Shown here piece by piece: positions 20,013 through 36,249 of a stretch of 64,000 nucleotides of DNA (within the stretch, counting starts at the first letter, position 1; each line of letters begins with the position of its first letter). A model generated the notes under the pieces. The model was not told where the DNA came from. It ran no database searches and was given only the letters and a program-made list of their open reading frames with translations. The DNA is from Telmatactis stephensoni (lineage: Eukaryota; Cnidaria; Anthozoa; Actiniaria; Isophelliidae), in assembly GCA_029948255.1 (NCBI GenBank), contig JALIZF010001524.1, positions 127,001 to 191,000 on the forward strand. Direction: 5' to 3'. The position numbers were made by a program, and so were the translations under genes.

Positions 20013-20043
20013 CACAGGAAAAAATTCCAAATTTCCACATGTG
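20013..20043 (+). repeat. Left terminal inverted repeat of CACTA-type element
   Basis: These 31 bp are identical to the reverse complement of 36219-36249. The sequence is internally rich in TTCCAAATTTCC-like half-palindromes, related to motifs in the adjoining arrays. Confidence 0.9.
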
Positions 20044-20249
20044 ATATCACATGGATTTCCCGTGGATTTTCAGAAATCCAAATATGATCATAAACCATGT
20101 TTGGAGCATATGTGGATTTTTAAAGGATATTTTTCCATTATGCTAAAAAACCATACATAATCCATACATGGATTTCTATTTTCCATGGATTTTGTGGTAA
20201 ATGTGAAATCAATGACGGTATTTTTCATTTTCCACCTTTGGATACACCT

Positions 20250-21800
20250 TAATAATCCATGTTTGGTTACTCAGTATTCCACACTAATAATGGTATTCCA
20301 ATTTTCCATGCCGATGCAGTTTGGAATATTGATAAACCACAACAGACAAACCAATCATAATCCATGTTTGGTTACTCAATATTCCACACTAATAATGGTA
20401 TTCCAATTTTCCATGCCGATGCAGTTTGGAATATTGATAAACCACAACAGACAAACCAATCATAATCCATGTTTGGTTACTCAATATTCCACACTAATAA
20501 TGGCATTCCAATTTTCCACACTGATGCAGTTTGGAATATTGATAAACCACAACAGACAAACCAATCATAATCCATGTTTGGTTACTCAATATTCCATACT
20601 AATAATGGTATTCCAATTTTCCACGCCAATGCAGTTTGGAATATTGATAAACCACAACAGACAAATCAATCATAATCCATGTTTGGTTACTCAATATTCC
20701 ACACTAATAATGGTATTCCAATTTTCCACGCTGATGCAGTTTGGAATATTGATAAACCACAACAGACAAACCAATCATAATCCATGTTTGGTTACTCAAT
20801 ATTCCACACTAATAATGGCATTCCAATTTTCCACACTGATGCAGTTTGGAATATTGATAAACCACAACAGACAAACCAATCATAATCCATGTTTGGTTAC
20901 TCAATATTCCACACTAATAATGGTATTCCAATTTTCCATGCCGATGCAGTTTGGAATATTGATAAACCACAACAGACAAACCAATCATAATCCATGTTTG
21001 GTTACTCAATATTCCACACTAATAATGGTATTCCAATTTTCCACGCCAATGCAGTTTGGAATATTGATAAACCACAACAGACAAATCAATCATAATCCAT
21101 GTTTGGTTACTCAATATTCCACACTAATAATGGTATTCCAATTTTCCATGCTGATGCAGTTTGGAATATTGATAAACCACAACAGACAAACCAATCATAA
21201 TCCATGTTTGGTTACTCAATATTCCACACTAATAATGGTATTCCAATTTTCCACGCTGATGCAGTTTGGAATATTGATAAACCACAACAGACAAACCAAT
21301 CATAATCCATGTTTGGTTACTCAATATTCCACACTAATAATGGTATTCCAATTTTCCACACTGATGCAGTTTGGAATATTGATAAACCACAACAGACAAA
21401 CCAATCATAATCCATGTTTGGTTACTCAATATTCCACACTAATAATGGTATTCCAATTTTCCATGCCGATGCAGTTTGGAATATTGATAAACCACAACAG
21501 ACAAACCAATCATAATCCATGTTTGGTTACTCAATATTCCACACTAATAATGGTATTCCAATTTTCCACGCCAATGCAGTTTGGAATATTGATAAACCAC
21601 AACAGACAAATCAATCATAATCCATGTTTGGTTACTCAATATTCCACACTAATAATGGTATTCCAATTTTCCACGCTGATGCAGTTTGGAATATTGATAA
21701 ACCACAACAGACAAACCAATCATAATCCATGTTTGGTTACTCAATATTCCACACTAATAATGGCATTCCAATTTTCCACGTTGATGCAGTTTGGAATAAG
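20250..21800 (+). repeat. Left subterminal array, ~14.5 copies of a 105-bp unit
   Basis: The unit starting CATAATCCATGTTTGGTTAC recurs at 20461, 20566 and 20671, exactly 105 bp apart. Variable positions fall in GCCGATG / ACTGATG / GCCAATG near the middle and in GACAAACC versus GACAAATC. The variants recur in a roughly five-unit order, which gives a higher-order period of about 525 bp. Since 105 is a multiple of three, a 540-codon open frame crosses the array; I do not treat it as a gene. By analogy with plant CACTA elements these could be transposase binding sites. Confidence 0.92.
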
Positions 21801-21886
21801 CTTGTAAAAAATTGTGTTGATACTGGTATGCAGGTACTTGCAATAACAATTTAACAGCATTTTTGTTGGGGTGTAGTTAATTCTAT

Positions 21887-24800
21887 CTAGTCATTGTCTT
21901 TCCAGGCAGCACCATGCCACTGCCCAGCTATGATGCCAATAATGCTTTGGTACATTATTCTGTCCATTGCTCTTCTTTGTGATTCCCTGACCCACAATGA
22001 ATTGTGATTCCAGAGTCTATGCTTAATAAAGAAGTAGCCACATGCAACTTTGAGGTCATTGTCTATAGTTCTTATTTCTGCTCTCCAAAGGTCTTCTCCA
22101 TCCCCTTTTACCAAAACCATATCACCAATCTGAGGGAATACTGGAACCAAAACTTGTGGTAGTGGTATATGTGTTCTTGATGGATCAATGACAGCAAATA
22201 GATCTTCTTGTAGTGGATACAGCATGATCTTTCTTTTCAAACTTCTTACGTAAAGGCAAGCATTCGTTTCAAAAGGCTCAACAATAGGAGTGTCACTTAA
22301 TGGATGTCTTAAATCATTATTCGATTGGTCTTTCTTTACTTTATAGGAATCTCCCATTAATAAAGAGATATACCTATCTTGACCATGCACCAAATAAATG
22401 TGTAAAATCTTGATGACTACCTCACTATTATTGTGTTCTGCAATGATGTTGTCCCCATGTTGATAGATTGTTCCTTCACCAGCAATACCTTGCATTGGTA
22501 CATAAGCACTTTTATATGATTCTGCCATAAATACATCTAAGTGCCTTACATCATTTGCTATACACTCAGTAATCTTGATCTTCTCTTCTCTTGATAAAAT
22601 ATGGATCTCTCCTTTTCCAATTAACACTTGAATGTGCCTTAATAGAGCCCGGTCTTCTTGCCTTTCAAACAGTCGTACAAGATTCTTTGCAGCTTGGAGA
22701 GAGGTTGCAACCATCTGAGATGAGTAATAATTACTCATTATTCATGATTCAATATTATTGTGTTACAGTGTTGTATTAATCATACACTTAACACATTTAT
22801 ACAGCAAACATGCAATTACAACCTTGTACATACACAAATGCATCAGCAAGAGAAGCAAATACTCATTGAAAGTGATATCACATTAAATAATGTCATAAGC
22901 ATCTCTTGACATACCTTTTCTTGGCAATATCCTCCATGTGATTTTGACTCAAAGATGTTTTGTTTGTTAGCAAGTGACCAGCTCTTTATGAACTCACGCT
23001 GGGACTCCTTTCTGGCAAATGTTTTCTCTATTCCTTTTTTATTGCTTGTTTGCTTGACATAGCGGCCAACCGCTCGTTCATATTGAAAACACCAATAATT
23101 GTCTGGTCCTGAAAATCGCATGATATCCTCTGGTACATGAGTCAAACCATGCAAGGTTATAACACATTCTGTGATTCCATAGGACTCTTCTACAAGGATA
23201 CAATATCTCCAGCATAGCCGAGTAAAGTTGTCCACCATATCTCTTGTCCAGCCATTTAATCCACTATTAAATATGAATTCAACTATTCTTGGGAGTGATG
23301 CCCAGACTTCCTTGTCATTAGGACTAAGGTCTCCAAGTACAAACTCTGAAGCTGGGTAGCCAAACTTCTGGAATTCTTCAGCTTCAAAACAAAACAGGTT
23401 CATAATACTATCTACATTATGCTTCATATGCATTCATATTATGACGTACAATAAGACAGGTGATGACTTCAGGCAGATTGTCTGATGTGATTGAATGGAG
23501 TTCAAGTTCCAAATCAAAAGACAGTGACACACAACCGTTATTTAATATGCACTTATTACCCTTCCAATGTCCAATGCCCAAGATATCTCTTGGTAATCTT
23601 GATCCTTTATATTCTGAATTTATGCAGGCATAAACAACAAAGTCATATATTAATAAAAAATATTAAACTCTCTTGCTTGGTCTGTACAGAGAAATATCAG
23701 ACCTCGGTCTTTTCTGCATGGTCTGCAGCCTTGGGCTGTACATTCAGCTCTTTATGAACTCACGCTGGGACTCCTTTCTGGCAAATGTTTTCTCTATTCC
23801 TTTTTTATTGCTTGTTTGCTTGACATAGCGGCCAACCGCTCGTTCATATTGAAAACACCAATAATTGTCTGGTCCTGAAAATCGCATGATATCCTCTGGT
23901 ACATGAGTCAAACCATGCAAGGTTATAACACATTCTGTGATTCCATAGGACTCTTCTACAAGGATACAATATCTCCAGCATAGCCGAGTAAAGTTGTCCA
24001 CCATATCTCTTGTCCAGCCATTTAATCCACTATTAAATATGAATTCAACTATTCTTGGGAGTGATGCCCAGACTTCCTTGTCATTAGGACTAAGGTCTCC
24101 AAGTACAAACTCTGAAGCTGGGTAGCCAAACTTCTGGAATTCTTCAGCTTCAAAACAAAACAGGTTCATAATACTATCTACATTATGCTTCATATGCATT
24201 CATATTATGACGTACAATAAGACAGGTGATGACTTCAGGCAGATTGTCTGATGTGATTGAATGGAGTTCAAGTTCCAAATCAAAAGACAGTGACACACAA
24301 CCGTTATTTAATATGCACTTATTACCCTTCCAATGTCCAATGCCCAAGATATCTCTTGGTAATCTTGATCCTTTATATTCTGAATTTATGCAGGCATAAA
24401 CAACAAAGTCATATATTAATAAAAAATATTAAACTCTCTTGCTTGGTCTGTACAGAGAAATATCAGACCTCGGTCTTTTCTGCATGGTCTGCAGCCTTGG
24501 GCTGTACATTCAAGACCTTGATATTTCTCTGTACAGACCTCACCCTTGTTTAATAATCTTTTAGTATTCAGAGATGCATCAGCATAATATTGCTAGTACT
24601 GAACATAAGGTACAATCAAAGAATTAGAAATAAAGTGCACAAAATGGATTTTTAATGATGTGCCACTAAATGATTTTAAGAGTATAAACACTGGATGATA
24701 CAGGATATAATCACTATGAAAAGTACAGGTATGGTACCTTTTGTCCATGGAATAAGCTTCAATCTTGCTTGCAGTTCATCTGTATTTACTAATGAGTTGG

Positions 24801-35143: not shown

Positions 35144-35589
35144 GGTTTGATGTCTACAAAACTACAGACAATCATTTTTGTGATAGTTTAAACGTTATGG
35201 CATAATATTGGATATCTTGTGACTATATTAAGTTCAAAGTTCATGTTGAAAGATATTATCGCAACTTTCAAGCTCATTACTTAAATGCATGTGACAATTT
35301 GATACATAGCGTATTCCATATACTGAATCATTTTGTATATCATTATATTTTGTGTATTGATTGGCTCATTAGAGACCGACACAAATTATACTTAATCGCT
35401 CACGATATGAAACTTTGAAATATGTTTGGCACAATTAGTTTTGTCAATGTTTCAAGGAGTTTAAAGTTTTAGTTTTCCTTATTTAGGATTGTCAATGATT
35501 TATATATATGTTTATATAGATTGAGTTATCCTAGAATAAATATTTTTTGTGTTATAAAGCATGGTTGTTAGTGGGTAATTGGGATATCT

Positions 35590-36070
35590 AGCAGTTGTGG
35601 GAAAGTGACTTTCCACATTTTACCAACTTTGGAAAAGTGATAAACCATTGTGGGTTTTTGGGATATCCATCTTTGGGAAAGCAGTTTTCCACATTTACCA
35701 AGGAGTTTGGAAAAGTGATAAACCATCGTGGGTTTTTGGGATATCCATCTTTGGGAAAGCGATTTTCCACATTTACCAAGGAGTTTGGAAAAGTGATAAA
35801 CCATCGTGGGTTTTTGGGATATCCATCTTTGGGAAAGCGATTTTCCACATTTACCAAGGAGTTTGGAAAAGTGATAAACCATCGTGGGTTTTTGGGATAT
35901 CCATCTTTGGGAAAGCAGTTTTCCACATTTACCAAGGAGTTTGGAAAAGTGAAAAACCATCGTGGGTTTTTGGGATATCCATCTTTGGGAAAGCAGTTTT
36001 CCACATTTACCAAGGAGTTTGGAAAAGTGAAAAACCATCGTGGGTTTTTGGGATATCCACTATGGAAAAT
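35590..36070 (+). repeat. Right subterminal array, ~6 copies of a 78-bp unit
   Basis: ACCAAGGAGTTTGGAAAAGT recurs at 35697 and 35775, 78 bp apart, with GATAAACCATCGTGGG and GGATATCCATCTTTGGGAAA in each unit. The unit shares a core with the left 105-bp unit: TTTGGAA, a few bases, then TGATAAACCA in the same orientation. Degenerate flanking sequence (36080-36218) is rich in AAAACCAC and TTTCCA motifs leading to the terminal repeat. Confidence 0.9.
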
Positions 36071-36218
36071 TACCAGGAAAGCCCAATTTTCCACATTTGG
36101 AAAATAACAAAAACAAATGTGGTTTTTTGAAAAAACCACTGTGGAAAAAAGGCATTTTTTCCAAATATGGAAAATATTTGAAAACCATATAAAAACCACA
36201 TAAAAACCACAATAAATA

Positions 36219-36249
36219 CACATGTGGAAATTTGGAATTTTTTCCTGTG
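36219..36249 (-). repeat. Right terminal inverted repeat of CACTA-type element
   Basis: This is the exact reverse complement of 20013-20043, followed by the second AAT target-duplication copy. Confidence 0.9.

What the first reader, a model, noticed from the sequence alone, without database searches (positions are those of the whole stretch)
20013..36249. A 16-kb animal CACTA-type transposon with perfect ends, two divergent genes and terminal arrays
The 31-bp perfect inverted ends, AAT duplication and Tnp2-like exons are seen directly. Together they tie a repeat array at 20.2 kb, two unrelated-looking gene sets, and another array at 36 kb into one mobile unit. Hand-phased splicing leaves both genes open (about 1060 and 408 residues). 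An animal CACTA element with a head-to-head SAM-domain gene would be a notable architecture.
Basis: partly seen in the sequence, partly recalled or inferred. Interest (0 to 1): 0.9.

Follow-up and report, generated by a model that had tools for sequence, protein, structure and literature searches.

The report
Two-gene CACTA transposon with SAM partner
This 16-kb stretch is a mobile DNA element of the CACTA kind, one of 13 copies found in a genome that is likely an animal's, and it carries a predicted cut-and-paste transposase gene head-to-head with a second gene whose SAM-domain protein likely helps the element move by gripping the repeat arrays at its ends.

Summary
20013-36249 has perfect 31-bp inverted ends and an AAT target duplication. 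The same genome has 13 copies; 12 show both ends in the fetched DNA, and 9 of those 12 have matching 3-bp flanks. The base element is about 12.9 kb; this copy adds a nested Harbinger-like transposon and a perfect 766-bp tandem duplication of transposase exons. Both predicted genes were re-derived: a 9-exon, 1078-residue transposase and a 6-exon, 408-residue partner, start codons 314 bp apart. The transposase aligns nearly end to end with a 1055-residue relative and keeps a D, D, CxxC, HxxxH, E pattern. The partner is a SAM-domain protein, clearest in a diverged relative that passes Pfam's cut-off. A second family in the genome (C255; transposase 46% identical) repeats the plan: same first 14 bases, CAT duplication, arrays at both ends, head-to-head SAM gene, shared intron positions. 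A third locus keeps the two gene starts head-to-head. So the SAM gene looks like an old component, not a passenger. Its function is inferred: likely the counterpart of plant TNPA, binding the terminal arrays. A search for papers with both 'SAM domain' and 'CACTA transposon' found none. Empty sites and RNA could not be tested.

The parts
20010..20012 (.). target-site duplication AAT, left copy
20013..20043 (+). left 31-bp terminal inverted repeat, CACAGG tip
   Evidence: exact reverse complement of the right end; 22 perfect sites in the genome
20252..21798 (.). left subterminal array, 105-bp unit x14.7
   Evidence: 5.5-24.5 units in the 13 copies
21887..31552 (-). predicted transposase gene, 9 exons: 31552-31318, 30386-29475, 29255-29208, 29068-28898, 28783-28619 (GC donor), 25094-24738, 23613-23560, 23381-22915, 22714-21887; 1078 aa
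   Evidence: exon models; relative P0001 aligns 9-1071; catalytic pattern
22979..24512 (.). perfect 766-bp tandem duplication, only in this copy; repeats exon 7 (24379-24326) and part of exon 8 (24147-23745)
25739..28111 (.). nested Harbinger-like transposon with 20-bp inverted ends and TACTA flanks; absent from the 8 siblings that hold this region
31553..31866 (.). 314 bp between the two start codons, likely a shared two-way promoter; 4 CCAAT and 2 TTTSSCGC (E2F-like, name recalled) matches
31867..35143 (+). predicted partner gene, 6 exons: 31867-32107, 32435-32518, 32628-32834 (SAM domain), 33034-33136, 33461-33789, 34881-35143; 408 aa
   Evidence: open in all 11 copies that hold the six exons uninterrupted
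35628..36059 (.). right subterminal array, 78-bp unit x5.5, related to the left unit
36219..36249 (-). right 31-bp terminal inverted repeat
36250..36252 (.). target-site duplication AAT, right copy

Best explanation
20013-36249 is one of 13 copies of a transposon of the EnSpm/CACTA clade that is predicted to move by cut-and-paste with a DDE transposase and that carries, head-to-head with it, a SAM-domain protein that likely binds the arrays at both ends and helps the transposase pair and cut them. Shown by sequence: paired inverted ends, 3-bp target duplications, young dispersed copies, two predicted genes conserved in a second family, and arrays at both ends that share short motifs with the tips. 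Predicted: the splicing, and a catalytic triad D386, D485, E749 with a zinc site C504/C507/H725/H729. Inferred: the transposase cuts at the CACAGG tips and inserts with a 3-bp stagger; the SAM protein, through its conserved second domain, contacts sites of the TTTCCA type that fill the arrays, and SAM-SAM contacts stack it along each array so that the ends come together. This would be the job that TNPA does in maize En/Spm, done by an unrelated protein. Four copies that lost the catalytic part of the transposase but kept the SAM gene and both ends likely moved with transposase supplied in trans.
For: Ends, TSDs and copies. Transposase: 32 homologues, 7 of 32 with precomputed PF02992; 2 of 6 tested pass the Pfam cut-off; D386 30/30, D485 30/30, C504 30/30, C507 29/30, H725 27/30, H729 29/30, E749 29/29. 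Partner: open in 11 of 13 copies, all coding indels multiples of three; SAM domain above cut-off in C255; profile hits PDB SAM domains. Second family with the same plan and a third locus with both gene starts head-to-head. Arrays: left and right units related, score 47 against a maximum of 30 in 300 shuffles; motifs about 20- to 130-fold denser in the ends than inside. Four transposase-less copies, each with its own matching TSD and an open SAM gene.
Against: The spliced transposase has no Pfam hit at E<=1. The tip is CACAGG, not CACTA. The window SAM exon alone is below Pfam's cut-off (17.0 bits against 23). The second domain has no known fold, so DNA binding is unsupported by homology. Units compared in inverted orientation score no better than shuffles (36 against a maximum of 38); array motif densities are inflated by repetition, and TTTTCCA is not enriched in C255. 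SAM search found no partner beside the many other transposase families. pN/pS is 0.46 and 0.52 on few changes, weak evidence of constraint. Three of 12 paired copies lack a matching TSD. No RNA, no empty site.
Confidence: 0.7

Rival explanations
1. The SAM protein is mainly a regulator (anti-silencing, transcriptional control or self-limitation of the element) and is not needed for pairing the ends.
For: TNPA of maize also regulates its element (passages). SAM domains are common in chromatin proteins; the best profile hit is Polyhomeotic. The intergenic region looks like a shared promoter.
Against: Arrays of related units lie at both ends in the window family and arrays lie at both ends in C255, as expected of sites that act in movement. 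Regulation alone would not call for both ends. Not decisive.
Confidence: 0.2
2. The SAM gene is a captured host gene carried as a passenger, without a role for the element.
For: SAM domains are common in animal genes; no homologue of the whole protein was found in the large protein database, so its origin is open.
Against: The same gene sits in the same head-to-head place in a second family at about 36-41% identity with shared intron positions, and a third locus keeps both gene starts. It stays open in 11 of 11 copies that hold all exons, including 4 without the catalytic part of the transposase.
Confidence: 0.07
3. Two unrelated neighbouring insertions or an assembly artefact produce the apparent unit.
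For: C836 and C482 have mismatched flanks, and C836 combines the 5' flank of C558 with the 3' flank of the window, so some contigs at this repeat are chimeric or recombined. The 766-bp duplication is perfect.
Against: Nine copies on separate contigs have both ends and matching 3-bp flanks, the window's own among them. A second family has the same plan.
Confidence: 0.03

Closest known systems
Maize En/Spm and plant two-product CACTA elements (Tam1, soybean Tgmt*)
   Same: Transposase plus a second protein; 3-bp duplication; subterminal repeats at both ends; deletion derivatives that keep the ends (passages of PMC2613891, PMC8978399, PMC4158355).
   Different: In En/Spm the two products come from one transcription unit by alternative splicing (passages); here two genes point away from each other. 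The partner has a SAM domain and no detected similarity search result linking it to TNPA. Tip CACAGG, not CACTA. Arrays here have units of 105 and 78 bp rather than motifs of some 12-20 bp.
SmTRC1 and TRC-type animal CACTA elements (with Spongebob)
   Same: Animal elements with Transposase_21-type transposase, introns and a tandem-repeat region (passages of PMC1636069, PMC4298943).
   Different: Those have CCC tips and 2-bp duplications; SmTRC1 is 4.5 kb. No SAM partner was seen in the passages read.
Actinostola protein QZH41_017201 (P0004)
   Same: Forms a 100/100-supported clade with the window and C255 transposases, nearer to C255 (98/96).
   Different: Its genomic neighbours could not be read, so a SAM partner there is a prediction.
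Other transposases of the clade (P0001, P0003, P0005 and long open frames in this genome)
   Same: Same protein from the N-terminal Cys/His region to the C-terminus; P0001 38% identical over residues 9-1071.
   Different: Open frames of 681-1094 residues in the best-scoring such places of this genome suggest few or no introns; the SAM search reported none of those places.

Membership tests
EnSpm/CACTA superfamily (CMC clade) | transposase homologous to Transposase_21 (PF02992) | tested here: met
   Not met by the protein itself (0 families at E<=1); met through homologues: 7 of 32 carry PF02992, and 2 of 6 rescanned pass the cut-off, 3 score below it, 1 has no hit.
EnSpm/CACTA superfamily (CMC clade) | DDE triad with C(2)C and H(3-4)H between second D and last E (passage of PMC12730594) | tested here: met
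   D386, D485, C504-x2-C507, H725-x3-H729, E749, each in at least 90% of the rows with a residue. The choice of E749 over E649 (30/31) follows the published order and is my assignment.
EnSpm/CACTA superfamily (CMC clade) | 3-bp target-site duplication | tested here: met
   9 of 12 paired copies; C255 CAT/CAT.
EnSpm/CACTA superfamily (CMC clade) | tip reads CACTA | tested here: not met
   CACAG in both families. The motif defines plant CACTA elements; the animal members in the passages read also depart from it. The name is used here for the clade, on transposase grounds.
EnSpm/CACTA superfamily (CMC clade) | subterminal repeats at both ends | tested here: met
TNPA-type accessory protein (functional class) | binds the subterminal repeats | not testable with these tools
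   No binding data; no recognised DNA-binding domain.
SAM domain | score above the Pfam cut-off over the whole domain | tested here: met
   C255 relative 30.1 bits (SAM_1, cut-off 23) and 24.9 (SAM_2, cut-off 20.5); C133 21.3 and window 17.0 are below. Profile of the three finds SAM chains in the PDB, best E 0.0013.
TRC (SmTRC1-type) animal CACTA | CCC tip and 2-bp duplication | tested here: not met
   CACAGG tip and 3-bp duplication.
Mobile unit | empty site lacking 20013-36252 minus one AAT | not tested
   Queries with joined flanks did not complete.

The most novel reading that the evidence does not exclude
A lineage of animal CACTA transposons runs on a SAM-polymer synapsis system: a transposon-encoded SAM protein coats long, hypervariable, satellite-like arrays at both ends, polymerises in the manner of Polyhomeotic, and zips the ends together for a RAG1-like transposase made from a shared two-way promoter. 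The same coat could shield or silence the element, making array length a tunable control of mobility.
Probability: 0.3. Interest if true: 0.82.

Novelty: new variant of a known kind. Interest (0 to 1): 0.66.

Why it matters
The second proteins of CACTA elements are known mainly from plants, and the passages read call them unrelated from element to element. A transposase/SAM pair conserved in two well-separated families of a likely animal genome would give animals a defined two-component CACTA system, with obvious array targets, young copies with open frames, and natural transposase-less derivatives. It makes testable whether animal members of this RAG1-related group need a partner protein to join their ends, and is a case where a SAM domain, common in chromatin polymers, may have been taken up by a transposon.

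Tried and rejected
Pfam scans of single exons and of the spliced transposase gave no transposase family for the CACTA gene; the relationship came out only through homologues. A PDB sequence search with the transposase core gave nothing meaningful. The rest of the SAM protein gave nothing convincing (a designed helical protein at E 0.01, a Ku80 C-terminal chain at 0.33, Rho_N at 0.027). Two protein searches with the 408-aa protein found no homologue; that tool needs shared 5-residue words, so distant kin can be missed. Composite of two insertions, passenger gene and assembly artefact were considered and set aside (see rivals). pN/pS was computed but is too weak to carry weight. Whether other transposase families carry a SAM gene was tested only by the one SAM-exon search; the 57%-identical locus C177 could not be read.

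Empty-site test: flanks of the window copy and of C160, C38 and C107 were joined in a script; the window and C160 joins were sent to the genome search, and no such query was answered. No empty site was shown or excluded.
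Full report
OBSERVATION. The two 31-bp ends are exact reverse complements and AAT flanks both. A search with 20013-21000 returned 13 left ends and 11 right ends in the window's own assembly; the 31-mer with up to 3 mismatches gave 23 sites, control 0. Fetching the 12 sibling copies showed that ends face each other in 11 copies, 7.2-29.0 kb long, plus C836, whose right end lacks one base. Of these 12, nine have identical 3-bp flanks (AAT, TGA, GGT, TAT, TGT, CCT, ATA, GTT, GTT); C283 (ATA/AAA), C482 (AGG/ATA) and C836 (AGG/AAT) do not. C430 has no right end in the 20 kb fetched. 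C482 and C836 share their 5' flank with C558, and the 3' flank of C836 is the window's (9.2 kb, 99.35%); these are best read as chimeric assembly or recombination between copies.

ANATOMY. Sibling copies align to the window at mostly 98-99.8% outside the arrays. The base element is about 12.9 kb (C558 12,927, C482 12,895). The window copy has two extras: a Harbinger-like transposon (DDE_Tnp_4, E 1.9e-18) at 25739-28111 with 20-bp inverted ends and TACTA flanks, and a perfect 766-bp tandem duplication covering transposase exon 7 and most of exon 8; neither is in the 8 siblings that hold that region. A usable chain still exists by skipping the extra exons; whether the cell does so is unknown. 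Four copies (C107, C282, C38, C908) lack everything from the left array to 29915, hence the catalytic part of the transposase, yet keep both ends, the SAM gene and their own matching TSDs. The shared breakpoint suggests that one deletion derivative spread.

GENES. Exon chains were built from stop-free frames and splice signals. The transposase has 9 exons and 1078 residues, with one GC donor. It aligns with the 1055-residue P0001 from residue 9 to 1071 at 38%, which independently supports the chain. Over 31 rows (3 of the 32 homologues were dropped: P0027, P0030, P0032), conserved residues give D386, D485, C504, C507, H725, H729, E749, the order described for EnSpm, Mirage, Chapaev and Transib (passage in PMC12730594). 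From recall, RAG1 has closely similar spacing around its own D, CxxC, HxxxxH, E. Of the nine copies carrying the transposase, eight were tested (C430 was left out because its exon 2 is split): five frames are open (C432, C283, C558, C836, C716), C160 and C240 have internal stops, C482 is frame-shifted. Of 13 copies, 11 hold all six exons uninterrupted and all 11 are open, with coding lengths of 1218-1227 that are all multiples of three; introns carry 1 to 43 gap columns; the SAM exon has no variable position among the 11. C430 lacks exons 4-6 in the fetched stretch and C240 has exon 3 interrupted.

IS IT A SAM DOMAIN? The window exon scores below Pfam's cut-off (SAM_1 17.0 bits against 23). 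The SAM-exon search of the genome gave 16 rows: the 13 element copies (C240 in two rows) and two diverged relatives, at C255 and C133, each 36% identical over the domain. The C255 exon passes the cut-off (30.1 bits); C133 falls just short (21.3). The three-sequence profile finds 47 distinct PDB sequences at E<=10, most of them proteins with SAM domains, best Polyhomeotic (E 0.0013). A second conserved block (exons 4-5, with AI..M.ERRR) and a C-terminal block (exon 6, compared in two sequences only) have no recognised fold.

A SECOND FAMILY WITH THE SAME PLAN. Around the C255 hit, 15.2 kb was read. It holds a complete element of about 9.7 kb: 55-bp ends (94.5%) whose first 14 bases, CACAGGAAAAAATT, equal the window's; CAT on both sides; a 67-bp array (x3.9) at the SAM end and 208-bp arrays (x3.9, x6.1) at the transposase end; the SAM gene on one strand and the transposase blocks in order on the other. 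Transposase identity to the window is 46% over 978 columns. At the boundaries that the script could place, introns sit at the same positions and phases. At C133 a SAM gene and a transposase exon 1 lie head-to-head; the rest was not read, and the exon-8 search lists nothing there, so that copy may be partial. In a tree of 31 transposases, window, C255 and an Actinostola anemone protein form one clade (100/100), C255 nearer the anemone (98/96); the tree warns of long branches elsewhere. So the pairing likely predates the split of these families, unless one passed it to the other. The exon-8 search gives 98 matches (150 of 161 candidates scored), many in long open frames at about 45% identity; the SAM search names none of their places. 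The SAM partner may thus mark one clade, but a fast-changing partner elsewhere would be missed.

ARRAYS. The 105-bp and 78-bp units share sequence: direct alignment score 47, against a maximum of 30 in 300 shuffles; the inverted comparison (36) does not beat its shuffles (maximum 38). TTTGGAA, TTTCCAC, TTTTCCA and AAACCA are about 20- to 130-fold denser in the ends than in the interior, which repetition inflates; TTTGGAA and TTTCCAC also occur in the TIR itself. Unit numbers vary from 5.5 to 24.5 (left, 13 copies) and 5.5 to 12.2 (right, 12 copies). In C255 the ends are enriched for TTTCCA and AAACCA but not TTTTCCA.

MECHANISM. From the transposase signature, 3-bp TSDs and dispersed young copies, cut-and-paste movement follows from what is known of the clade. 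The role of the SAM protein is inference: plant CACTA elements need a second protein that binds subterminal repeats, and such proteins can be unrelated from element to element (passages in PMC2613891). A conserved second gene plus arrays at both ends in two families fits that role. SAM-SAM contacts are a plausible way to line up many bound copies; this step is untested. Regulation is the main alternative, and TNPA does both. The 314 bp between the start codons hold 4 CCAAT and 2 of the window's 4 TTTSSCGC matches; the 218 bp between the C255 starts hold 2 of that element's 3, a lead towards a shared promoter.

LITERATURE. Passages were read in PMC1636069, PMC12730594, PMC8978399, PMC4298943, PMC2613891 and PMC4158355; no paper was read whole. 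A search for 'SAM domain' with 'CACTA transposon' returned 0 papers. Among the papers listed (20 of 44, 15 of 21, 15 of 202, 8 of 107), 'SAM domain' or 'sterile alpha motif' is counted only once, in PMC11760641, a zebrafish piRNA study by its listing. Repbase cannot be searched here, so a consensus may exist there.

HOST. A 1899-residue BEL/Pao frame (Peptidase_A17 E 1.4e-47), a group known from animals (recalled), and the anemone kinship make an animal likely; an anthozoan is possible but not shown.

Noticed in passing
window 51479-62054: A BEL/Pao-type integrase (rve at 51479-51871, DUF5641 at 61206-62054) looks split by a roughly 9.3-kb insert bounded by inverted arrays of one 20-bp unit (51858-54205 and 60239-61215), with a weak OTU-like hit at 57701-58354 below cut-off: perhaps another DNA transposon with satellite-like ends.
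   Followed up: partly
window 31553-31866; C255:178505-193729, relative 4994-5211: Between the start codons: 2 of the window's 4 TTTSSCGC (E2F-like, name recalled) matches and 4 CCAAT in 314 bp; 2 of the C255 element's 3 TTTSSCGC matches in 218 bp.
   Followed up: partly
G000 contigs C836, C482, C558 and window 36250-45502: C836 and C482 share C558's 5' flank but have other 3' flanks; that of C836 is the window's (99.35% over 9.2 kb): assembly chimeras or ectopic recombination between copies.
   Followed up: partly
window 25739-28111: Nested Harbinger-like element with DDE_Tnp_4 on the minus strand and a second open frame (27310-27906) on the plus strand, flanked by TACTA, longer than the 3 bp recalled for Harbinger.
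   Followed up: partly
window 9092-14791: Uninterrupted 1899-residue BEL/Pao polyprotein frame.
   Followed up: no
window 18587-19265: Two facing 8-bp-based arrays (GTAGCAAT type and its complement) just left of the element.
   Followed up: no
G000 contigs C62, C870, C890 and others: Related transposases in open frames of 681-1094 residues at about 45% identity: further, perhaps intronless, families of the clade.
   Followed up: no
window 38795-39229: DDE_3 endonuclease fragment (E 6.7e-9), another transposon remnant.
   Followed up: no
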